Below, piece by piece: positions 1 to 22,202 of a stretch of 23,732 nt of DNA (position 1 is the first letter of the stretch; each line of letters opens with the position of its first letter). The notes beneath the pieces were generated by a model. That model was not told the DNA's origin, searched no databases, and saw only the letters and a list, made by a program, of their open reading frames with translations. A program made the translations under genes and the position numbers. This DNA is from a virus, in IMG/VR virus record IMGVR_UViG_3300006108_000063, positions 1-23,732 of that record. One strand, 5' to 3'.

Positions 1-1679
1 AACGGAATCGGTTCACCCGCGTACGGGTCGTTTTCTGGATCGTCAGGCCGCATGTCGGCATCTGGGTCGACATTCTCATACACCATTTTCCGGGCCTTGT
101 CATCGTAGGATGCGAGACGCCCGAGGAGCTTCATGACGACGGCGAGCGACATGATCGTATCGTCCGTGCACCCTGATTTTGCCTGATAGGTTCCACCTGC
201 CGCGACGAAGTTCTGCAGCTCGAAGAGAAGCTTGTCAGAATAGATCTTCATCCCGTTCTCTGAACCCTTTTCCAGTAGGCTCTTGATCTGCATGCAGGCA
301 AGAAGCTTGGACTTACCGGTCGTATAGCACCCGAGACGCGCAGAGTTCTCGTTGTAAAGGTCCACGCCGTCGATGTAGATGCCACCATCAGGGCTGTCAT
401 CATTCTGGATCATCGCGACCAGCGCTTCACCGATACCGTTTCGTTCAAACGACCAGATGATCTCAGCTCGACCACCATTTGGTCCGGGCTTGCGAAGGTA
501 TTTGAACAGCCACTTGAGCTTGGCGTAGATCAATGGGATGTTGACGGTGTTCAAGCGTAGCTCGGCTATCTGCTCGAGGCGTGGGAACTCAAAGACCTGG
601 ATGACAGTGAAGTCCTTACCGTTACCAGTTGCAGGGTCGAGACCGACCATGTAGGTAACGTTTCGACCACCAAGCTGATCCTCCGGCTTCCAGAATCTGA
701 AGCCCATGTTCTCGAAGACAGGCGGCTTCGACTTGATGTAGGACAGCTTGAGCGAATCGATGAGCATCGCTTCAGACGAGATGAACTCGCAGTTGTGAGA
801 CACGATACCATCAGAGTAGTACTCGTGTCCGTCTGCTACCTCGACAGGATCATACACTGTCTCAGCTGCTGCTTCTCGATCTAAGTACTTGACAGCTGAG
901 AACCCATCTTCCGTCTTTACGACATCGTCGTAGGTCAGGGCTGACACGGCAATGAATCCGTTTGCAGTCTCAACACGATGGTCGGGTGTGCAGCGTAGGA
1001 CTGTCCCATTTGACAGAGTAAGCTTGAACATCCCGCGCGCTTGGTGCGCGCGCACCCCCGCAAAGTCTTTGAACCCACTTGGGGTTAGGATCTCGTACTC
1101 GTTGTTCTTCTTGAACTCAACCTCTTTCCAACTGTCACCCTTCAAGATCTTTCGGATTCCAGTAATCGTGAGCTGCGGGTAGTGATTCTCCTGAAGCCAC
1201 CAAGCGAGGCTGCTCAAGTAGTCAGAATCCTTTCTTCGCGGTTGAACATTAACTTGATCAACAAGCAAGCTGCGCATGAAGATGACATCAGCAGGCGTGA
1301 CCTTTGATGAGTAACGGCTACCTGCCCTGGATATCTTCAACTTGTAGCCACCCTTGCCTTTGTTCCAGGCTTCCTTCTTTGACGCTCTCCGTGCTGAGCT
1401 AATGCTCATGCGGGTCTTGGCTGGGTGCTTGTTTCCACGCTGTAGCGCAGACAGCTCCTCTGGAGTCTTGTCCATCCGGCGCGCAATCAGCATCGCGCCG
1501 CCCCAATCACCTTGTTCTACATGTATGTCAAAGTGTTCCTGGATGGTGACACACTGCAGGTTCTCGAGTCTGTTGTCGGAGTGATCCTTGTTGATGTGAT
1601 GGATCTCGTAAGCTCGCCCATCAGCGTCACGCGGAATAGGACCATGTGCGTCGATCCATACTTGGCGGTAGTGCTTCAT
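1..1679 (-). CDS. terL: HNH endonuclease - C-intein - terminase nuclease domain (second half of split large terminase; runs off window)
   Basis: The frame opens at ATG 1679, overlapping the stop of the first terminase half by 4 bases (ATGA), and stays open to the left window edge. I translated it by hand and found no stop. Residues 1-183 are an HNH homing endonuclease: EIHHINKD at 25-32, NRLENL near 36-41 and EHFDIH at 48-53, followed by a helix-turn-helix-like segment ending GDSWKEV. Residues about 184-296 are an intein C-part with block B (CTPDH) and a C-terminal block ending DGIVSHN. Cys297 is the +1 extein residue, after which the terminase resumes as CEFISSEA. The extein carries RNase H-like nuclease acidic residues: Asp in GLDPATG, Glu in SFERNG and Asp-Asp in CTDDTIM. 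The protein should trans-splice to the N-half to rebuild TerL, which cuts and pumps DNA into the prohead. A -1 frameshift producing one long protein is the alternative. Confidence 0.85.
   Translation of the reverse strand, partial: MKHYRQVWIDAHGPIPRDADGRAYEIHHINKDHSDNRLENLQCVTIQEHFDIHVEQGDWGGAMLIARRMDKTPEELSALQRGNKHPAKTRMSISSARRASKKEAWNKGKGGYKLKISRAGSRYSSKVTPADVIFMRSLLVDQVNVQPRRKDSDYLSSLAWWLQENHYPQLTITGIRKILKGDSWKEVEFKKNNEYEILTPSGFKDFAGVRAHQARGMFKLTLSNGTVLRCTPDHRVETANGFIAVSALTYDDVVKTEDGFSAVKYLDREAAAETVYDPVEVADGHEYYSDGIVSHNCEFISSEAMLIDSLKLSYIKSKPPVFENMGFRFWKPEDQLGGRNVTYMVGLDPATGNGKDFTVIQVFEFPRLEQIAELRLNTVNIPLIYAKLKWLFKYLRKPGPNGGRAEIIWSFERNGIGEALVAMIQNDDSPDGGIYIDGVDLYNENSARLGCYTTGKSKLLACMQIKSLLEKGSENGMKIYSDKLLFELQNFVAAGGTYQAKSGCTDDTIMSLAVVMKLLGRLASYDDKARKMVYENVDPDADMRPDDPENDPYAGEPIP
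792..1130 (-). other. C-intein fragment, about 113 residues
   Basis: This segment follows the endonuclease tail GDSWKEV without a stop. It begins around EFKKNNEYEILTPSGF, contains the block B TxxH motif in CTPDHRV, and ends VADGHEYYSDGIVSHN before Cys. The exact boundary with the endonuclease is inferred from where HNH-type similarity ends and intein-type beta sequence begins. Confidence 0.8.
1034..1052 (-). other. GC-only hairpin inside C-intein coding sequence
   Basis: A perfect 7-bp stem of alternating C and G (1034-1040 with 1046-1052) closes a 5-base loop. On the coding strand it is followed by GGGATG, an in-frame Met codon. It has no T-run, so it is not a terminator. It may be only a consequence of the codons used. 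Confidence 0.35.
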
Positions 1680-2545
1680 GATAGTCTCTCCATCAGTTCG
1701 GACATGCTGATCTTCTCAACCTGCCCAGTCTTCTTGTTTCGAACTGTCACGATTGATTCCCCGGCAAGGCAAAGCACTTCCTGACGGAATCCGATAGGAC
1801 CAAGCTCACCCTGCATCTGCGCGAGGTAGTCCTCGGCACGATCTGGGTGGCGATGCCATGGGTAGAAGACCGGCTTGAACGAGTTCTCTTCGGAGTTAGC
1901 ACCGCGCCATAGGGTTGCGAACAGCTCTGTATCGCCGTTTGGAGTCGAGCTGATGATAGCGTCACCACCAGTGGACAGCGTAGGAGCAAGGGATCGCCAC
2001 ATTTCGGTCTGAATGCGAGGCGAGATAAACGCCAACTCATCAAGGTACAGCTTAGAGATAGCAAGACCACGACCGGTTTTTTCAGTCGTTGCTTCTGACT
2101 TGATTCGAGAGCCGTTGTCAAACTCGATGTTGTGCTTGTTGTAGTAGCGGCATCCGGCCTTCAGCCAATGTGGAAGTTCTTCGTAGGCGAAGCGGATACG
2201 GTCCATGATTTCCATTGCGTGGCCGTTGTTCTTCGATGCGATGACGATGGTCTTGTCGGGCGTGAACATGGCGTACCACAGAAGGTACATGGAGATGGTT
2301 TGTGTCTTACCCATCTGACGCGAGATGAGCGCGATGACACGTGAGTTATCCTCACAGTGGCGGATCAACTCTTCTTGGTAGTCGTAGAGGTTGAAAAGAA
2401 TCTTACCCTTGGTAGGGTGCTGAAGCCAGACGTAGTTCCGGATGAAGTGCACCGGATCCTTCTTGCACTTCACGAGCTCTTGAATGAGCTCCGGGGTGTA
2501 CTCGCTTTCCGCGTACGCCCTTTTGATTAGGTCGTTAGCCAACAA
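1676..2545 (-). CDS. terL: Large terminase ATPase domain with N-terminal intein fragment (first half of split terminase)
   Basis: This 289-residue protein carries the packaging ATPase of a T4 gp17-type terminase. Visible motifs are Walker A SRQMGKT (75-81), Walker B LYLDE (166-170) and the coupling motif SSTPNG (199-204), followed by GFRQEVL. Cys259 then begins an intein block A (CLAGESIVTV) that runs 31 residues to a TGA stop at 1678-1676. The rest of the terminase is in the next frame, joined by an ATGA overlap. No ATG is available near the N-terminus. TTG at 2545 or 2542 is used, with AGGAG four to seven bases upstream. A late-promoter-like box lies about 60 bases upstream. The ATPase motifs look intact, so I read this as a split-intein gene rather than a dead one. 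A simple frameshift mutation is less likely because both intein halves keep their splicing residues. Confidence 0.9.
   Translation of the reverse strand: MLANDLIKRAYAESEYTPELIQELVKCKKDPVHFIRNYVWLQHPTKGKILFNLYDYQEELIRHCEDNSRVIALISRQMGKTQTISMYLLWYAMFTPDKTIVIASKNNGHAMEIMDRIRFAYEELPHWLKAGCRYYNKHNIEFDNGSRIKSEATTEKTGRGLAISKLYLDELAFISPRIQTEMWRSLAPTLSTGGDAIISSTPNGDTELFATLWRGANSEENSFKPVFYPWHRHPDRAEDYLAQMQGELGPIGFRQEVLCLAGESIVTVRNKKTGQVEKISMSELMERLS
1679..1771 (-). other. N-intein fragment (block A), 31 residues
   Basis: The segment starts with Cys (TGC at 1771-1769) and reads CLAGESIVTV, a typical block A, then an acidic amphipathic tail ending MERLS immediately before TGA. Naturally split inteins usually have N-parts of about 100 residues. 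Very short N-parts are the mark of the atypical class found in phage terminases. Confidence 0.85.
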
Positions 2546-2740: not shown

Positions 2741-3619
2741 CTATACGGCTTTCATGATCTTGGCATAAGTGACGTTTATGTCAAGCACCAGCATTTGACC
2801 CTGAATCCAAACTTCAGTGTCGCGTCTTACGACATCCTTAGGAATATCGCGGCCATAGTGCCACTCATGCCCAGTTTTCTTTGGCGAGTAGGCATTGTTT
2901 AGAAGCTCGATAAAGTGATTACTGCAGTCATTTGCAATTTTATCCAGGGTTTCTTTGTCAGATTCTTGCTTAGGGTCTAGATAATGATTGAAAAGAAATC
3001 CCGAGCAGTTCGCAAGTGCTTTGTAAAGTGTCTTATTGGCGCGCACATCTCCGGTCTTAAGGAGATGTGCAAAAGCTTTGATATCTTGCCACGTTTCCTC
3101 AAGTCCAAGATGTCTGTAGAAGCTGTTAACTTCATTCATAGCTGTTTCGAACTTGAACATGTTAGGCAGAAAGCTGATGGGTGTATTCCAAATATCGTTG
3201 GTGTTGGCGATCCCGACCTTTGCGCTGTCGAAGGGAATGATCTGTACTGGCTTCGACCCGTAATTTCCGGCTTCTAGCGGGTCAGTCGTGCAGATTATAG
3301 ACTTGGATCTCTTAGGAAAGTCGTGACGAGAAGGAATATTATCCATGATGACCGTATAGTGGTTTGTGGTCATGTTCTGACTTTTTCTAGTCGTCAGCTC
3401 AGAGTTTAGAGTCGCGTAGTGGTCATGAGCTAACGCTCTTTCCATGCTGTCATCACCGCGATAGAAAGGTGTGTTATGCTTGAGCATCCAAATGCTGCCA
3501 GCGCAGTGGGTTTCAAGTATATCGGCGATTTGCTTGGCGCTCTTGATGTCAAGAGTTGGAGCTGCACTGTCTTCAGCCGCGGCTTCATTTAGATCTATAA
3601 GCTCACGAATCAACTTCAC
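2741..3619 (-). CDS. Putative capsid-internal ADP-ribosyltransferase-like protein (paralogue 1)
   Basis: The protein has 292 residues from GTG at 3619, with AGAGGA upstream. It aligns end to end with the next upstream gene product, so the two are tandem paralogues. Shared blocks are PFYRGD (Arg54), a TRKSQN segment, FPKRSKS followed by ICTT, a TGHE segment, and a late E-x-W-I motif near the C-terminus. An Arg in FYRG, a Ser/Thr block and a C-terminal Glu are what the R-S-E class of ADP-ribosyltransferases shows, so I infer that fold. The match is by motif only. The leader MKLIRELIDLNE before AAAED resembles T4 capsid-targeting peptides cut after Glu. T4 packages and injects such an enzyme (Alt, which modifies RNA polymerase). 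The target here is unknown. Confidence 0.65.
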   Translation of the reverse strand: MKLIRELIDLNEAAAEDSAAPTLDIKSAKQIADILETHCAGSIWMLKHNTPFYRGDDSMERALAHDHYATLNSELTTRKSQNMTTNHYTVIMDNIPSRHDFPKRSKSIICTTDPLEAGNYGSKPVQIIPFDSAKVGIANTNDIWNTPISFLPNMFKFETAMNEVNSFYRHLGLEETWQDIKAFAHLLKTGDVRANKTLYKALANCSGFLFNHYLDPKQESDKETLDKIANDCSNHFIELLNNAYSPKKTGHEWHYGRDIPKDVVRRDTEVWIQGQMLVLDINVTYAKIMKAV

Positions 3620-3623
3620 TGCG

Positions 3624-4475
3624 TTAGTCCTCTTCTGGGAACATTCCTGCTTTAATTCTGCTAAGTGTGTGGGCGGTGATTACCACAATGTCACCTTCAA
3701 TCCAGGCCTCTGACTTTTCTTTATAAAAGTCGTGTGGCAGAGTTGCCCCAGTGAAGGCTTCGTGTCCGGTTGATTCTGGAGAGTACGCGTTGTTGATCGC
3801 CTGCAGGAAGTGATCCTTCAGATAGTCAACGACCTCTTGGACCTTTTCGGGTGTAGAAAGGCCGTATGATGTAAAACGCGTGACTGCAAATCTAAGACTC
3901 TTTATGGCTTCTTCATCGCCACTCTTGAGCTTTTCTGCAAACCGCACAATATCTTCCCAGCTATCATCGATATCACTTCTCGCAAAGAACTGATTCATGC
4001 TATCGATGTTGATTTTTCTAGTGAGGAAGCTGGGAATAAAGGATATTAGGGTGTCCCACATGTCATCTCGGTGCACAAGTCCGATCTTTGCATCATCAAA
4101 TGGAATCAAGCACGTAACTACTCCACTATAGAGGGAGGCAGTTTCGCGGCTGGTTGTGCAAATCAATGACTTTGATCTTTTGGGAAATCCTCTGGTTGAA
4201 GGGGTGTTGTCAAATATGACTGTATAATAGTTGGCGGTGTTCTGACTCTTCCGAGTTGTCTTACGTGTATCTACAATTCCGGTGTCAGCTCCACCTAGCA
4301 GACCTCTGTCACCGCGGTAGAAAGGCCTGACCTCCTTAACCATCCACATCGTGTGTTTACAGTGCTTCTTGAGAATGTCAATCGCCTGCTCTATTTGCAG
4401 CTCTTCTGCTCTGGCGGGCTTGCTACCGTAGGCAGTAGCTTCTGAGATGTTAAGTAGGTCTCTTATGAGTTGCAT
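3624..4475 (-). CDS. Putative capsid-internal ADP-ribosyltransferase-like protein (paralogue 2)
   Basis: The protein has 283 residues with ATG at 4475 and AAGGG upstream. Its layout matches its downstream neighbour: leader MQLIRDLLNISE then ATAYG, Arg54 in PFYRGD, TTRKSQN at 74-80, RGFPKRSKS then LICTTS at 95-109, a TGHE segment, and SEAWIEG near residue 260. The motifs fit an ADP-ribosyltransferase fold (Arg, STS-like block, Glu), but no structure or search supports this yet. The stop lies only 4 bases before the next gene, so the pair is co-translated. The leader suggests cleavage after Glu12 and packaging in the head. Base composition is visibly more A+T-rich than the structural genes, which fits accessory cargo. 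Confidence 0.65.
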   Translation of the reverse strand: MQLIRDLLNISEATAYGSKPARAEELQIEQAIDILKKHCKHTMWMVKEVRPFYRGDRGLLGGADTGIVDTRKTTRKSQNTANYYTVIFDNTPSTRGFPKRSKSLICTTSRETASLYSGVVTCLIPFDDAKIGLVHRDDMWDTLISFIPSFLTRKINIDSMNQFFARSDIDDSWEDIVRFAEKLKSGDEEAIKSLRFAVTRFTSYGLSTPEKVQEVVDYLKDHFLQAINNAYSPESTGHEAFTGATLPHDFYKEKSEAWIEGDIVVITAHTLSRIKAGMFPEED

Positions 4476-4478
4476 AGT

Positions 4479-5219
4479 TTAACCCTTATACCAACCATCG
4501 ATCTTCTTCTGAAGAACTTGGTCTGAAATGATCGAAGGAACAAGATACTTATCACCATTCTCTTTCAGCTCTTCAATGACCCTCTTGCCGATTGGGTTCT
4601 TGACAGGTGAAGAGAAGAATGACTGTGAGGACACAAAGAGCTTTTGCATCAGCTGATTGTCAAGCTGATCATTGTTCACAATCTTCTTTGAGAATCCAAC
4701 CTTCGACATTAGGTACTGTGCATTCTCTTCGCTATGAGTGAAGACGCTTTCGATGAATTCTTTGTCAACATGGCGCTTGATTTTCTCAGCGCGTTCTTCT
4801 GCACGTCGAATAGCAACATCCAAGTCAGCGTGAACGTAGATGACACCTACGTCGTAGCCTAGTGACTCAAGGATGCCCATGCGGTGTTGAATGTTCGAGA
4901 GATCGTTGGACGTGCCGTCTACAAAGAGTGGCAGCATTCCATCAACGTAGTAATACAGAGACTTGATGGTTATTCTGACCGACGAGTCTCTAAAGTCAGA
5001 GAACCAGTTGCTTGAAGTAGCAGCCTTGTCATACTTTGCAGACAAGAACTCAACGGCTCTATCGGTGTTGACAATCTTTGGGGATATGGTTCCAGACAGT
5101 TGCTTAACAGTATAGCTCTTCCCAGCACCTGGCAGTCCGATAACGAATATTGTCTTGAAGAGACCCTTATCGTTTATCGACTCATTTACGAATGCTTTGA
5201 AGGTAATCCTATTTGTCAT
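4479..5219 (-). CDS. Zeta-toxin-like P-loop kinase with capsid-targeting leader
   Basis: From ATG 5219 the protein has 246 residues. A Walker A motif GLPGAGKS (28-35) follows a beta strand IFVI, and VNTDRA near 52-57 resembles the substrate-binding Asp region of zeta-toxin and polynucleotide kinases. FVDGTSNDL and the basic stretch RRAEERAEK follow the usual order of that family (strand, lid). Predicted activity is ATP-dependent phosphorylation of a small substrate or nucleic acid; the substrate cannot be read. An ATG at 5246 adds nine residues. I prefer 5219 because it places the leader ITFKAFVNE/S at the N-terminus like its neighbours, though neither start has a strong Shine-Dalgarno. It overlaps the upstream gene by 11 bases. 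If the leader is real, this kinase is packaged and injected. Confidence 0.75.
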   Translation of the reverse strand: MTNRITFKAFVNESINDKGLFKTIFVIGLPGAGKSYTVKQLSGTISPKIVNTDRAVEFLSAKYDKAATSSNWFSDFRDSSVRITIKSLYYYVDGMLPLFVDGTSNDLSNIQHRMGILESLGYDVGVIYVHADLDVAIRRAEERAEKIKRHVDKEFIESVFTHSEENAQYLMSKVGFSKKIVNNDQLDNQLMQKLFVSSQSFFSSPVKNPIGKRVIEELKENGDKYLVPSIISDQVLQKKIDGWYKG

Positions 5220-5439
5220 TTTTGTCACAAGTGTTATTGAAGTCATGGAAGCTGATGGACTCTTTAACGCCCATCATCTTCTTCGTGATTCCAGTAACAA
5301 GTGCCCAGAAGGATGGGTCGTCTTCTGACTTACCATATTCTTTCTTGACAATCTTCTTTGCGTGCTGCCAGTCATGTTCAGCATCGGCCATTGTCTTGCC
5401 GGACTTCTTGACTAGCGATTTGAGAACTGCTGCGGGCAT
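5209..5439 (-). CDS. Small conserved-looking phage protein, function unknown
   Basis: The 76-residue basic protein starts at ATG 5439, two bases after the preceding stop. The N-terminal half is helical and Lys-rich (LKSLVKKSGK, then AKKIVKKEYG), and the middle reads DPSFWALVTGITKKMMG. The C-terminus reads ESISFHDF, which looks like the FKxF leaders found at the N-termini of neighbouring proteins, here at the other end. I do not recognise a catalytic motif. Its place in the cargo block suggests a head-internal or DNA-associated role, but that is inference. Confidence 0.7.
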   Translation of the reverse strand: MPAAVLKSLVKKSGKTMADAEHDWQHAKKIVKKEYGKSEDDPSFWALVTGITKKMMGVKESISFHDFNNTCDKNDK

Positions 5440-11185: not shown

Positions 11186-11653
11186 TTAGACCTTCTTATT
11201 CTCGCCGTCGATGGTGATCATCTTGAGAATCTCTTCACGGCTAGCGATGACTACGTTGGTTGTGCTCTTGCCGCCGCCTTGGTTGGCATAAGGAACGAAA
11301 GACTGGTTTGCTCTCTTACGATCGACCTTAACCTTGGCGCGGCTGTTTGCTGCAGCCAGTGCTATATTTAGGAACCCAGCTGCAACTTCAGCATTTCTGG
11401 CTGCAAACTTTGGTTCGATAACTTCGATGAAGGAGGTCTGGGTTTGGAATGCTTCCATAGCCGCGTCATAGACTTCGTCGATGCGCTTTTCAACAAGGAT
11501 GTCATCCTCGTCTTTGATGTCTGGCGGCATGTCTTCAGGATTCATCGGTGCGGTCGGACGTGGTGCGTCCGTCATCGCGTACTCGTTCTCAATATCCAAA
11601 TCACTACCGCCTTCAATGTTGAAGACGCTGTCTAGTGGGTGCTTGAAGCTCAT
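11186..11653 (-). CDS. Probable small terminase subunit (gp16-like)
   Basis: The 155-residue protein starts at ATG 11653, overlapping the stop of the second gp4-like gene by 4 bases. The N-terminus is acidic (DSVFNIEGGSDLDIENEY, then PPDIKDEDD). A central helical pair around DEVYDAAMEAFQTQTSF and ARNAEVAAGFLNIALAAANS follows. This layout (acidic head, coiled-coil helical centre, small C-terminal part) and the length resemble T4 gp16, which recognises concatemeric DNA and stimulates gp17. The call also rests on position beside head-completion genes. Unusually, about 8.6 kb of other genes separates it from terL. Confidence 0.6.
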   Translation of the reverse strand: MSFKHPLDSVFNIEGGSDLDIENEYAMTDAPRPTAPMNPEDMPPDIKDEDDILVEKRIDEVYDAAMEAFQTQTSFIEVIEPKFAARNAEVAAGFLNIALAAANSRAKVKVDRKRANQSFVPYANQGGGKSTTNVVIASREEILKMITIDGENKKV

Positions 11654-12129
11654 TTCCTCGTTCCTTGCGTGCTCTTAGTCCCGCGAGTTGTCCTTGCTCT
11701 TTTAGGAGTCTTGGTCACCTTGCGTCTGAACAGCTGATTCTCTGTGATCACTCGAAAGCGAGCACCGATAGATTTGGCGAAGCGATCAGCTGCTGCCCAC
11801 TTTGCCATGTTCTTGATAAGGCTAAGCTTATCGTAAGTTGACTTTGCGTTTTCTGCCAGCGATTCTTTAAGAGGCTTAATCTCCAGAATCTCAATACTGT
11901 TGTCTGTGTACTGCACCAAGAAGTCTGGCCAGTACTGGTGAACCTTCTTGTCAAGTGGATTGACGTATGAGATATTTAGAGTTTTCGGCTCGCTAATCCA
12001 CCGGGCGACCATACTTGAGTTGTCGAGAGCTTGCATGTACATGAGCTCCCACTTAGAACGAGCAACAACGCGGCGAGCATCGCCTGCATACTTAGCAACG
12101 TTCTTAACGGTGTAGCGATACTCAGCCAT
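11650..12129 (-). CDS. gp4: Head-completion nuclease, gp4-like (copy B)
   Basis: The 159-residue product has a PD-(D/E)xK nuclease plan like T4 gp4: ARSKWE with Glu, then KVHQYWPDFLVQY with the catalytic Asp, and EILEIKPLKE with the E-x-K pair. The C-terminal half has AKWAAADRFAKSIGARFRV and ITENQLF, as in gp4 proteins. In T4, gp4 acts in head completion before tail joining. It starts at ATG 12129, overlapping the upstream copy by 8 bases. The tail is basic and Lys/Arg/Thr-rich. It differs from copy A in having Ile-Ser-Glu-Pro where A has Gly-Ser-Glu-Glu, but its active-site residues remain, so both copies could be active. Confidence 0.85.
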   Translation of the reverse strand: MAEYRYTVKNVAKYAGDARRVVARSKWELMYMQALDNSSMVARWISEPKTLNISYVNPLDKKVHQYWPDFLVQYTDNSIEILEIKPLKESLAENAKSTYDKLSLIKNMAKWAAADRFAKSIGARFRVITENQLFRRKVTKTPKRARTTRGTKSTQGTRK

Positions 12130-12586
12130 CTACTTTCTTCTTTCTTGATTTCTTAGGCTGCTTTACGCCTTGGTAGAATATGGACTGCTCTGTAATAACT
12201 CGAAACTTCATGCCGTAGTTTTCACACCAGATCGCTGCTGCCTTCCACTTGGCTTCATTGACTTCAAGTGCTGCCTTGGAACGATCACTTTTAGCATGTG
12301 CTGCTTCACTTTCATGGAGCGGCTTTACCTCAACGATCTCCTTAAGGACGTTGCCATTGGCATCACGATACTCAACGAAGAAGTCTGGGTGGTACTGGTG
12401 GACCTTGTGATCTACTGGGCTGAAGTATGGAATGACGACCTCTTCACTTCCCCACCTGATGACTGCGGGGGTAAGGTCCATCCACTTCATCACCGTGACC
12501 TCCCACCGGGAACGGGCAAAGATTTTGCTGACATCCCCTACATACTTGTCGGGGTTCTTGGGTATGAAGCGGCCTCTGAATGCCAT
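12122..12586 (-). CDS. gp4: Head-completion nuclease, gp4-like (copy A)
   Basis: The 154-residue product is the closer match to T4 gp4. It begins MAFRGRFIPKNPDKYVGD, comparable to the T4 start that also reads PKN-x-x-KY-x-GD. It continues ARSRWEVTVMKW, WGSEEVVIPYFSP, YHPDFFVEY and EIVEVKPLHE, giving the Asp and E-x-K residues of a PD-(D/E)xK nuclease. AKWKAAAIWCENYGMKFRV and ITEQSIF complete the fold. It starts at ATG 12586, two bases after the stop of the upstream structural gene. The two gp4-like genes are tandem paralogues, whereas T4 has one. Confidence 0.9.
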   Translation of the reverse strand: MAFRGRFIPKNPDKYVGDVSKIFARSRWEVTVMKWMDLTPAVIRWGSEEVVIPYFSPVDHKVHQYHPDFFVEYRDANGNVLKEIVEVKPLHESEAAHAKSDRSKAALEVNEAKWKAAAIWCENYGMKFRVITEQSIFYQGVKQPKKSRKKKVDG

Positions 12587-19582: not shown

Positions 19583-21492
19583 GTCAGTTTCTTTCCCAGT
19601 GGTTGGTTATTGGCAGACTGCATGATGCTCTGAACAGATGGCTTGAACGAGCTGTACTTGGCTCGTCTGTCTGTTTCGAGGTAGATCCATCTGTTCTTTA
19701 CCGCGGAATAACGGTAGAGGCGAGGTGGGATTGCAGTCTCCGGTGGATAGTACAGGCGGAAGTATTCACCGTCAGTAAGACCAGCAACTGGTGGAAGCTG
19801 GAAGCCTTCACCGTATGGCTGATCATCCGGCGGAAGGGCCGACTCAATGTAGAGGTTGGCGCGCTGTTCTGGATTTGGAACTGCAACCGCTGGTGGCTGG
19901 CCCTTTGGATTGGCGGGCGGTGCTGCTCGTGGCAGGGGGATGCCTGCGACCGAACGAATGTCATCCGATCCAGTTTTTGGTACCTCATCAAACGCGTTCT
20001 TGTTGATTTCTTCTGTCGCGGTGAGAGGGTACGTGTTTAGCTGTTCGCCGATACCATCCGTTAGAATAGCATCTGGGATAAGATACTTCTGAGTGTCCAG
20101 CGTTCCAAAGATGTCGCGAGTCTCTTGGGAAGGAAGAGCCTGCTGAGCATTGAAGCGATAGACTGTTGGGTTGTAAGCTGGGCCGTATCCAGATGCCGCC
20201 CATGCTGTGTCCGTAACTTCAAGGAACTTGCGGATTGGCATGAGGTTCTGGTCATACTGAAGTTCTGGGATAACTTCAATGATGTCGCCAGTTACAATAG
20301 GGCGTCCCAAAGTTTGGACCATCGCTGCGAAAGAAACAGTGAAGACATACTGGTCAAGCATGCTCAGACCGAAACGTGATAGGTCAGAGACGTTGTCACC
20401 TGGAGTGTATTGGCACTTGATGAGCAGCGGTTCTTTGGCGTAGTCACGATCTCTGTTCTCGTTGAAGAACAGATCCTGAATGTTGTTGATGTCTGTAGGT
20501 GGGCTATCAAGAACGTCCAGCGCCAGCACTTCCCAGCTGTTAGCACCCGTAAAGAGAGTTGGCGTAACTCGGATTGCCTTGACCTTGGTGACGGTCTTTA
20601 GGTTGAGAATCTGTGGAGCGTTGGTTTGGATCAGGTTGAACATTGCAACTCTGTTCCAGTTGTAAACGACCACAACCGAGAACATGTCTCCACCAACGAA
20701 TGGGATCATTCCATCGGAGATGGTGAAGTTCAGGAACGTGCTGTAGAATGGAACGCCGACCGTTGCGGTACCAAGACCAATGACGGTGTTGTCTGGGAGA
20801 GTTGCATAGCAGTTAAAAGTCGTTGCGGTAATGGCAACAGCAGTCACGACGCCTTGAGTAGCATCAGAGCCAGTGCCATTTACAGTCAGAAGACCCGTGC
20901 CAGTTCCCGTGAAGTTTGTTGCTCCAACGGAAACATCACCAGTCGTAAGCTCTACTCGGACCTGTTGTGCCCAATACCCAGGGACGTTAGACTGCGTAAT
21001 GGAGATTGCACCAACATCAGTCCACTTCTGGGCTTGTGGCTCGTACTCAGAAGTACCACCAACTGACAACACCTTGATGCCAAAGTCTACGCCAACGTAG
21101 ACATTTGACGTGGTGACGTTGGCTCCAGACGCAAGTGATCTCCAGCTAGTCGTGTTAATGCCAGACGCTGGATAGCCCGGATAAGGAGCAGACGTGATGA
21201 TGCGACCCTCTGAAAGGATCGATCCTACGCCTTGGTCATGGATGCCCAGAAGCTTGAAGACATTCATGGGAGCCCCAGAGATGTTTAGCGTCTCGGCTAC
21301 ATACGTCTGTTGGTTAAGCTGTTCGTTTGTACCACAGGTGTCTGGGTTCAACCCAGTGATAGCCCAGTCACCAATCGGTAGAGTTGGTGGAACGTATGGC
21401 TTCAGCGCAGGGTTATTCGTCCCAATCTGAGCTGGGGTACCGTTAGGATTGTTGAGGCTGCCGCCTCCGTTTTCGCACGGCAAGGTTGGCAT
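19579..21492 (-). CDS. Probable neck protein (gp14-like) with extra beta domains
   Basis: The 637-residue protein starts at ATG 21492, sharing one base with the stop of the homing endonuclease (TAATG). Residues about 75-320 resemble a discoidin-like beta sandwich (ending VKAIRVTPTLF, then SWEVLALDVLD), with the sheath-type surface module inserted at about 195-277. The C-terminal part (about 340-500) reads GRPIVTGDIIEVIPEL, MPIRKFLEVTD and NPTVYRFNAQQALPS, which resembles the G-D-x-I segment of T4 gp14 and similar neck proteins. A Pro-rich tail follows. Position between gp13-like and gp15 genes is that of gp14. T4 gp14 has only 256 residues, so this would be an expanded version. It could be another neck or head-tail surface protein. 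Confidence 0.6.
   Translation of the reverse strand: MPTLPCENGGGSLNNPNGTPAQIGTNNPALKPYVPPTLPIGDWAITGLNPDTCGTNEQLNQQTYVAETLNISGAPMNVFKLLGIHDQGVGSILSEGRIITSAPYPGYPASGINTTSWRSLASGANVTTSNVYVGVDFGIKVLSVGGTSEYEPQAQKWTDVGAISITQSNVPGYWAQQVRVELTTGDVSVGATNFTGTGTGLLTVNGTGSDATQGVVTAVAITATTFNCYATLPDNTVIGLGTATVGVPFYSTFLNFTISDGMIPFVGGDMFSVVVVYNWNRVAMFNLIQTNAPQILNLKTVTKVKAIRVTPTLFTGANSWEVLALDVLDSPPTDINNIQDLFFNENRDRDYAKEPLLIKCQYTPGDNVSDLSRFGLSMLDQYVFTVSFAAMVQTLGRPIVTGDIIEVIPELQYDQNLMPIRKFLEVTDTAWAASGYGPAYNPTVYRFNAQQALPSQETRDIFGTLDTQKYLIPDAILTDGIGEQLNTYPLTATEEINKNAFDEVPKTGSDDIRSVAGIPLPRAAPPANPKGQPPAVAVPNPEQRANLYIESALPPDDQPYGEGFQLPPVAGLTDGEYFRLYYPPETAIPPRLYRYSAVKNRWIYLETDRRAKYSSFKPSVQSIMQSANNQPLGKKLT
20662..20910 (-). 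repeat. Sheath-type surface module inserted in the 637-residue protein
   Basis: Residues about 195-277: TGTGTGLLTVNG, TAVAITATTFNCYA, IGLGTATVGVPF, MIPFVGGDMFSV. It shares the GTG, T-AT-F, GTATVG and PF-GGD-F pattern with the two sheath modules. Confidence 0.65.
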
Positions 21493-22202
21493 TATGCTTT
21501 TCTCAATATTCTAAAACCATCTGAGTATTTACCATTAACGACGGTTTTATAGAGCTTTGAGATGCTCGTTCCGTTTTCAATTGCAAACTTCTTTATGTTC
21601 GTAACCGTAATTTTTCCCGATGGCGTTTCAACTATCCAAGATTGGGACTTTGCTCTTGAACGGTTTGCATGTTCTTCTGCTCGCTTTTCTGGAGTAACAG
21701 TTGCAAGATATGCGGCTTGGGCTTCTCTCATCTTTTGCCGGGTTTCTTCAGTACGCTTTTTCCCGGTATTCTTTGCGACCCTATTAGCAATTGTTTCTGC
21801 AGATTGTTTTTGTTTCTTGTAGCCGCTTTCCTTCAGATTAGCCCACATCTTTTTCAGTGATGCAGACATCTTTGCTTTGGTTTCTTCCGTAAGAGCTTTA
21901 CCCGGTTGATTTCCTGTTCCTCCGGTCCTAATGTTCATGCACATAGGGTTTTTACGATGTTCATCTGTGATGATCTGTTCCTCACGAAGAGAAAGAGATT
22001 TTCTGTCTGGTAAAAACTCAAGCACCTCATAGACATGATTTTCTTTTCCGTACTTTTTTACCGACCGTGACAGAATAGAACCACTCCCAAGATAACCATC
22101 ATTTATGTTATCAGTAGAGTGCATGCCTAAGTAATACTTTCCAGTTACGGTGCACGTTGTCTTGTATATGACGTGGTACTTTCTTTGTTCTGCTCTGTTC
22201 AT
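21492..22202 (-). CDS. Free-standing GIY-YIG homing endonuclease
   Basis: The 236-residue protein starts at ATG 22202 with AGGAG upstream and a perfect TATAAATA box 24 bases before it. The GIY-YIG domain covers about residues 8-100: YHVIYKTT, then YYLGMHS, SRSVKKYGKENH, LREEQIITDE with the metal-binding Glu, and MNIRTGGTGN. Two NUMOD3-type DNA-binding motifs follow (LTEETKAKMSASLKKMW and RTEETRQKMREAQ), then a C-terminal helix-turn-helix part like other phage Seg/Mob enzymes. It cuts DNA to copy itself between related phages. It lies between gp13-like and gp14-like genes, ends in TAATG overlapping the downstream gene, and is more A+T-rich than both. It is a mobile gene. Confidence 0.93.
   Translation of the reverse strand: MNRAEQRKYHVIYKTTCTVTGKYYLGMHSTDNINDGYLGSGSILSRSVKKYGKENHVYEVLEFLPDRKSLSLREEQIITDEHRKNPMCMNIRTGGTGNQPGKALTEETKAKMSASLKKMWANLKESGYKKQKQSAETIANRVAKNTGKKRTEETRQKMREAQAAYLATVTPEKRAEEHANRSRAKSQSWIVETPSGKITVTNIKKFAIENGTSISKLYKTVVNGKYSDGFRILRKA

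What the first reader, a model, noticed from the sequence alone, without database searches (positions are those of the whole stretch)
1..2545. Terminase gene broken by an atypically split intein (31-residue N-part)
The ATPase half ends 31 residues after an intein-type Cys, and the nuclease half begins in the next frame by an ATGA overlap. Both intein halves retain Cys1, TxxH, His-Asn and Cys+1. Known split inteins mostly have long N-parts; the few with very short ones include terminase inteins from viral metagenomes. If it works in trans, this phage must assemble its packaging motor post-translationally from two proteins. Short N-parts of this type are also of interest as natural protein-ligation modules.
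Basis: partly seen in the sequence, partly recalled or inferred. Interest (0 to 1): 0.85.

Follow-up and report, generated by a model that had tools for sequence, protein, structure and literature searches.

The report
Split terminase intein carrying a homing nuclease

Summary
On the minus strand, TerL-N (ATPase) plus a 31-residue IntN (1679-2545) ends in an ATGA overlap with a second ORF that carries IntC and TerL-C. IntN and IntC are real: models built without the window hit exactly these stretches (E 3.9e-7 and 1.5e-32), and the closest solved structure is CatN/CatC, the consensus of the AceL-TerL and GOS-TerL split inteins. A 91-95% identical TerL with an empty site exists (L001). The split is typical for this site: of 46 other same-site TerL inteins classified, 40 are split with IntN of 24-46 aa (median 30). 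In relatives this nuclease is normally a separate gene whose stop overlaps IntC's start out of frame. HEN-IntC fusions otherwise turned up only in cultured Aeromonas phages of the PX29 type (GIY-YIG) and Vibrio phage Va1 (EDxHD-like). Best reading: a mobile, trans-splicing TerL intein that releases HEN-IntC. Splicing and cleavage are inferred, not shown. The family is known; the fused variant is apparently undescribed in papers.

The parts
1772..2545 (-). TerL N-terminal half (ATPase domain, 258 aa), TTG start with SD AGGAG at 2550-2554
   Evidence: Pfam Terminase_6N E 1.7e-16, phrog_5989 E 6.7e-60; Walker A SRQMGKT, Walker B LYLDELAF read from the translation
1679..1771 (-). IntN, 31 aa, Cys1 first, ends after the first helix (S2-type split)
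   Evidence: HMM of 40 relatives without the window: E 3.9e-7, profile positions 1-30; only PDB hit at E<10 is CatN 6dsl_A, end to end, E 0.74
1676..1679 (-). ATGA overlap of ORF1 stop and ORF2 start
1686..1691 (-). Shine-Dalgarno-like GGAGAG, 6 nt before the ORF2 ATG
   Evidence: read from sequence
1116..1679 (-). HNH homing endonuclease, ORF2 residues 1-188, own start codon, fused in frame to IntC
   Evidence: HNH_3 E 2.9e-11; aligns to the I-TevIII-like endonuclease of phage HY03 from residue 2, 53.9% identity; C-terminal part matches the free-standing HENs at the same place in relatives
792..1115 (-). IntC, ORF2 residues 189-296, with TPDH (978-989) and terminal HN (792-797); no ATG of its own
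   Evidence: CatC 6dsl_B E 5.6e-9 single sequence, 4.7e-32 by profile; AlphaFold2 pLDDT 95.8, top Foldseek hit 6dsl Cat, TM 0.83
3..791 (-). TerL C-terminal half (RNase H-like nuclease), starts with Cys+1 (CEFISSEAM), runs off the contig
   Evidence: phrog_36964 E 6.7e-21; Pfam Terminase_6C E 0.0044, below cut-off; PDB 3c6a terminase nuclease E 2.1e-7

Best explanation
A mobile, naturally split intein of the AceL-TerL/GOS-TerL type sits between the ATPase and nuclease domains of the phage's TerL. Two overlapping ORFs are translated from one message: TerL-N-IntN, and HEN-IntC-TerL-C, the second by its own ribosome site at the ATGA overlap (sequence shown; coupling inferred). IntN docks on IntC, Cys1 and Cys+1 with the terminal Asn carry out protein trans-splicing, and full-length TerL is released (inferred from the family). 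By-products are the 31-residue IntN and a 296-residue HEN-IntC protein. The HNH nuclease, whose C-terminal region is shared with HENs of the same TerL site in other phages, cuts intein-free terL alleles such as that of L001 and lets the cassette copy itself in (inferred). In most relatives the HEN is a separate overlapping gene; here that overlap has become an in-frame fusion and IntC has lost its own ATG.
For: Catalytic residues and both extein halves intact. Independent profiles find IntN and IntC; CatN/CatC are the nearest solved relatives. Same insertion site (HN|CEF) as AceL-TerL, found as L072/L087. 40 of 46 other classified same-site inteins are split at about the same point. The gap holds a free-standing HEN (HNH, GIY-YIG or EDxHD-like) in about 23 of the 40; in the 21 where it could be measured the HEN stop overlaps IntC's start, always out of frame. 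The HEN's first residues align with I-TevIII's own start, so ORF2 begins at a real start codon. Empty allele L001 at 91-95% DNA identity with exact junctions; most close TerL relatives are uninterrupted, a few carry other inteins of the family at the same site. Cultured phages carry the same layout in this essential gene: PX29 with 17A 'contains putative N-intein' and 17B 'contains putative GIY-YIG endonuclease and C-intein', and Va1.
Against: No splicing or cleavage was measured. No close relative of the whole HEN-IntC cassette was found, so purifying selection on this copy could not be tested. IntN alone is too short for a strong match to solved structures (E 0.74). An internal TTG (ORF2 codon 179) could in principle start a HEN-free IntC.
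Confidence: 0.84

Rival explanations
1. The two frames are one ORF broken by an assembly or sequencing error: a contiguous intein with an HNH insert.
For: Single contig, no reads available; contiguous inteins at this site exist (L034, L068, L085, L088, L090, L109).
Against: ORF2 starts exactly where I-TevIII starts, with GGAGAG 6 nt upstream; IntN ends where 40 other IntN end; cultured phages PX29 and Va1 have the same two-ORF layout; none of the six contiguous inteins found contains a HEN.
Confidence: 0.05
2. The intein halves no longer splice; TerL works as two separate polypeptides held together non-covalently, or the phage lineage is failing.
For: Splicing not measured; TerL-C is cut off by the contig end; each half is a whole TerL domain.
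Against: All splicing residues and TerL motifs intact; IntC modelled confidently as a Hint partner; about 100 cultured phage records carry related TerL inteins, which would be odd if they did not splice.
Confidence: 0.06
3. Trans-splicing works, but the HEN is a passenger that has lost nuclease or homing function, and was fused because nothing selects against it. (A variant of the best explanation, not exclusive of its splicing part.)
For: The window HEN lacks the GVG...NG..SYE motif conserved in relatives' C-terminal part; fusions are rare among relatives; 17 of 40 relatives have no HEN ORF detected in the gap.
Against: HNH motif intact (EIHH...N...H), frame open over 188 codons, and sporadic presence in close TerL relatives suggests recent movement.
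Confidence: 0.3

Closest known systems
AceL-TerL / GOS-TerL split inteins and the consensus Cat intein (PDB 6dsl)
   Same: Same gene; same insertion site |CEF (seen for AceL-TerL, L072/L087); same split position; IntN 25, 37 and 30 aa against 31 here; Cys+1
   Different: Here a HEN is fused to the N-terminus of IntC; in the AceL-TerL loci the two halves abut without a HEN
Aeromonas phage PX29 gp17A/gp17B (and AsFcp_1/2/4)
   Same: TerL-N-IntN (33 aa) followed by an overlapping ORF HEN-IntC-TerL-C; annotated as such by the submitters
   Different: GIY-YIG (SegE-type) instead of HNH; insertion site shifted by one residue; a common origin with the window intein is weakly rejected (p-AU 0.041)
Vibrio phage Va1 TerL
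   Same: IntN 33 aa, overlapping ORF2 = HEN-IntC-TerL-C at the |C.F site
   Different: HEN is Vsr/EDxHD-like (DUF559 E 2.5e-5)
'Fractured genes' of Dassa et al. 2009 and the layout of L041, L046, L043 etc.
   Same: Split intein halves flanking a HEN in a phage gene
   Different: There (paper not held; from memory, and seen here in relatives) the HEN is a separate ORF
I-TevIII (HNH homing endonuclease of T4-type nrdB introns)
   Same: N-terminal 80 residues 54% identical to the HY03 homologue, same start
   Different: The C-terminal part is that of the TerL-site HENs, not of I-TevIII

Membership tests
AceL-TerL-type atypically split TerL intein | Inserted in phage TerL at the |CEF site between ATPase and nuclease domains | tested here: met
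   Site identical to AceL-TerL loci L072/L087 and about 70 other loci
AceL-TerL-type atypically split TerL intein | Split after the first helix; IntN about 25-37 aa, IntC about 104 aa | tested here: met
   IntN 31, IntC about 104-108 aa; IntN HMM match 1-30; CatC aligned along its whole length
AceL-TerL-type atypically split TerL intein | Hint fold of IntC completed by IntN | tested here: met
   IntC model pLDDT 95.8, top hit 6dsl Cat; the complex with IntN was not modelled
AceL-TerL-type atypically split TerL intein | Cys1, block B His, terminal His-Asn, Cys+1 | tested here: met
   C1 at 1771, TPDH, HN, C+1
AceL-TerL-type atypically split TerL intein | Protein trans-splicing activity | not testable with these tools
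   Needs co-expression
HNH homing endonuclease (I-TevIII-like) | HNH motif in an HNH_3 domain | tested here: met
   HNH_3 E 2.9e-11
HNH homing endonuclease (I-TevIII-like) | Cuts the intein-free allele near the insertion site | not testable with these tools
   An empty-site allele exists (L001)
Bifunctional (maxi-)intein with HEN at the canonical C35 site | HEN inserted about 35 residues before the intein C-terminus | tested here: not met
   HEN lies before IntC, at the S2 split; nothing of HEN size within IntC
Fractured gene with free-standing HEN | HEN as a separate ORF between the halves | tested here: not met
   HEN and IntC are one open frame; the usual IntC ATG reads GAG

The most novel reading that the evidence does not exclude
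Homing endonucleases do become covalent parts of inteins away from the canonical C35 site: at the S2 position of split TerL inteins, fused to IntC by three unrelated nuclease families (HNH here, GIY-YIG in PX29, EDxHD-like in Va1) or to IntN (Vibrio phages VP-1, K469, 1.244.A). Gene splitting makes this possible because the HEN is tethered on one side only. HEN invasion at S2, bringing its own start and stop, would also explain how these inteins became split.
Probability: 0.5. Interest if true: 0.6.

Novelty: new variant of a known kind. Interest (0 to 1): 0.47.

Why it matters
The fused nuclease matters more: a published account holds that all intein HENs sit at one conserved site because other sites would clash with the host protein (PMC6801210). 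TerL inteins with a HEN on IntC or on IntN are natural counter-examples, some in cultured phages, and make both that steric rule and the origin of atypically split inteins directly testable. The survey also adds some 40 natural short-IntN split inteins to the pool for protein ligation.

Tried and rejected
Scans with the whole HEN-IntC protein found no close copy in viral contigs or genome contigs. Programmed frameshifting: no slippery heptamer seen by eye at the overlap, and ORF2 has its own start and SD; not pursued. A regulatory hairpin over the ORF2 ribosome site, as reported for I-TevIII (PMC2988022): a 6-bp hairpin overlaps the SD but the region folds no better than shuffles (z -0.19); dropped. 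Separate acquisition from the inteins of the closest TerL relatives (L014, L049, L066): suggested by about 30% IntC identity to L014 against 65-77% for TerL-C, and by the tree, but holding them together is not rejected (p-AU 0.23), so not claimed. An alignment for folding HEN-IntC as one piece (A2) put HEN C-termini onto IntC and was discarded; IntC alone was folded instead. Stenotrophomonas phages RAS14/CM1, where BLAST ran on into IntN, proved to have an uninterrupted TerL in RAS14.

Full report
What is there. The window is a whole virus record of 23,732 bases from a myovirus-like phage (tail sheath, tail tube, head closure genes). On the minus strand, ORF1 (2545-1676, TTG start with AGGAG) encodes the TerL ATPase half, then 31 residues CLAGESIVTVRNKKTGQVEKISMSELMERLS and a stop. 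ORF2 starts at the overlapping ATG (1679, ATGA) with GGAGAG six bases before it and runs 559 codons to the contig end. Its parts are an HNH homing endonuclease (HEN, residues 1-188), IntC (189-296) and the TerL nuclease half from Cys+1. The TerL motifs (SRQMGKT, LYLDELAF, STPNG; GLDPATG, SFERNG, CTDD) are read as intact from the translations.

Is it more than chance. HMMs built from 40 IntN and 43 IntC of other phages, without the window, were run on all six frames of the window: IntN E 3.9e-7 and IntC E 1.5e-32, both exactly here, with nothing else near. In the PDB the IntC's best match is CatC (5.6e-9 alone, 4.7e-32 with the profile) and IntN's only match is CatN, weak but end to end (E 0.74). 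AlphaFold2 gives IntC a confident all-beta fold (pLDDT 95.8) whose top structural match is again the Cat intein 'with atypical split site'. The IntN-IntC complex was not modelled.

Surroundings and relatives. A DNA pattern for an intein end followed by |CEF found about 75 IMG/VR loci with an intein at the same TerL site. Among 46 other distinct cases with TerL-N in view, 40 are split and 6 contiguous; IntN lengths are 24-46, median 30; position 1 is Cys in 34 and Ser in 6. L072/L087 carry the sequence I know as AceL-TerL (recognised from memory; the 25-residue IntN agrees with PMC11766414). Of the 40 split loci, about 23 have a HEN ORF in the gap (8 HNH, 9 GIY-YIG, 4 EDxHD-like, 2 unclassified by my motif search) and 17 have none that was detected (a few of these are truncated or degenerate). 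In the 21 loci where both ends could be measured, the HEN stop overlaps the IntC start by 8-101 bases, out of frame in every one. The HNH and GIY-YIG HENs share one C-terminal region with different nuclease heads, which fits one target site with swapped catalytic domains (inference).

The unusual point. In the window the HEN and IntC are one frame...KGDSW KEV EF KKNNEYEILTPSGF. The usual IntC start (ATG TTT) reads GAG TTC, and no ATG lies near; only TTG codons 155 and 179 could start inside. Such HEN-IntC fusions were found elsewhere only in the PX29 group (GIY-YIG, annotated 17A 'contains putative N-intein' and 17B 'contains putative GIY-YIG endonuclease and C-intein'; AsFcp_2) and in Vibrio phage Va1 (EDxHD-like). 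Vibrio phages VP-1, K469 and 1.244.A have the GIY-YIG HEN fused to IntN instead; Providencia phage PSTRCR_127 has a free HEN and EniLVp02 none. PMC6801210 states that all HENs within inteins sit at the C35 site and proposes a steric reason; the fusions here lie at the S2 split (nomenclature of PMC13014065), about ten residues before the N35 loop by my alignment to NpuDnaE, made by eye.

Mobility. L001 has the same TerL without the intein, 91% and 95% identical in DNA on the two sides, with clean junctions. Of 19 contigs found with ORF2, 13 are uninterrupted at this site, five contigs (three of them identical here) carry a different split intein of the family at it, and L018 has an intein after residue 80 (Walker A) instead. 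This patchwork is what a homing element produces, but homing itself is inferred.

How it probably works. Translation of both ORFs from one message; docking of IntN on IntC; trans-splicing through Cys1, Asn and Cys+1; release of full-length TerL and of HEN-IntC; HEN-driven copying into intein-free terL during mixed infection. Shown: the anatomy, family and site, the empty allele, the open HEN frame. Inferred: splicing, translation by re-initiation, nuclease activity, homing. Support by analogy is good because isolated phages carry the same arrangement in this essential gene.

Compared with what is known. It works like, and by every tested feature is a member of, the AceL-TerL/GOS-TerL/Cat family; IntN of 31 lies within the published natural range of 15-37 (PMC13014065). 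Campylobacter phage IBB_35 was already reported with a terminase interrupted by an intein and a HEN-containing element (PMC3322345), and MIJ3 with a split PolB intein around an HNH gene (PMC6892783). It fails the definitions of a canonical maxi-intein (HEN at C35) and of a fractured gene with a free-standing HEN. No paper found here describes a HEN fused to IntC at the short-IntN split, but the library lacks many subscription papers, and Dassa 2009, Bachmann 2015 and Stevens 2018 were not held; PX29's GenBank note shows the arrangement has been seen. Hence 'new variant of a known kind', close to 'new member'.

Noticed in passing
window 21492-22202 (-): A second, free-standing homing endonuclease (phrog_314 E 3.8e-38, NUMOD3) between a head-tail adaptor-like ORF and a virion protein ORF; its stop overlaps the next start at 21492.
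   Followed up: partly
window 2741-5246 (-): Two adjacent ORFs (2741-3619, 3624-4475) match the same N-terminal part of phrog_12810 and a third (4479-5246) its following part with kinase-like matches: tandem duplication or a broken gene.
   Followed up: no
window 11650-12586 (-): Two neighbouring head-closure paralogues (both phrog_218).
   Followed up: no
L053, L058, L073, L077, L104; L130 (Vibrio phage VP-1), L137 (VmeM-32): TerL genes with two or three inteins at different sites (Walker A, Walker B, |CEF), several of them split with short IntN, so one TerL would need to be joined from several polypeptides.
   Followed up: partly
L053, about 1-1500: TerL intein at the Walker B site with a GIY-YIG endonuclease fused in frame to IntN.
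   Followed up: partly
L131 (Campylobacter phage CPX) 2501-3832: An ORF starting with IntC followed by TerL-C (Walker B site), directly after an unrelated neck gene; TerL-N is not adjacent and must lie elsewhere in the genome.
   Followed up: no
L002 4409-5000 (same in L003, L004): The gap between IntN and IntC holds what looks like a frameshifted remnant of a Vsr/EDxHD-like endonuclease.
   Followed up: no
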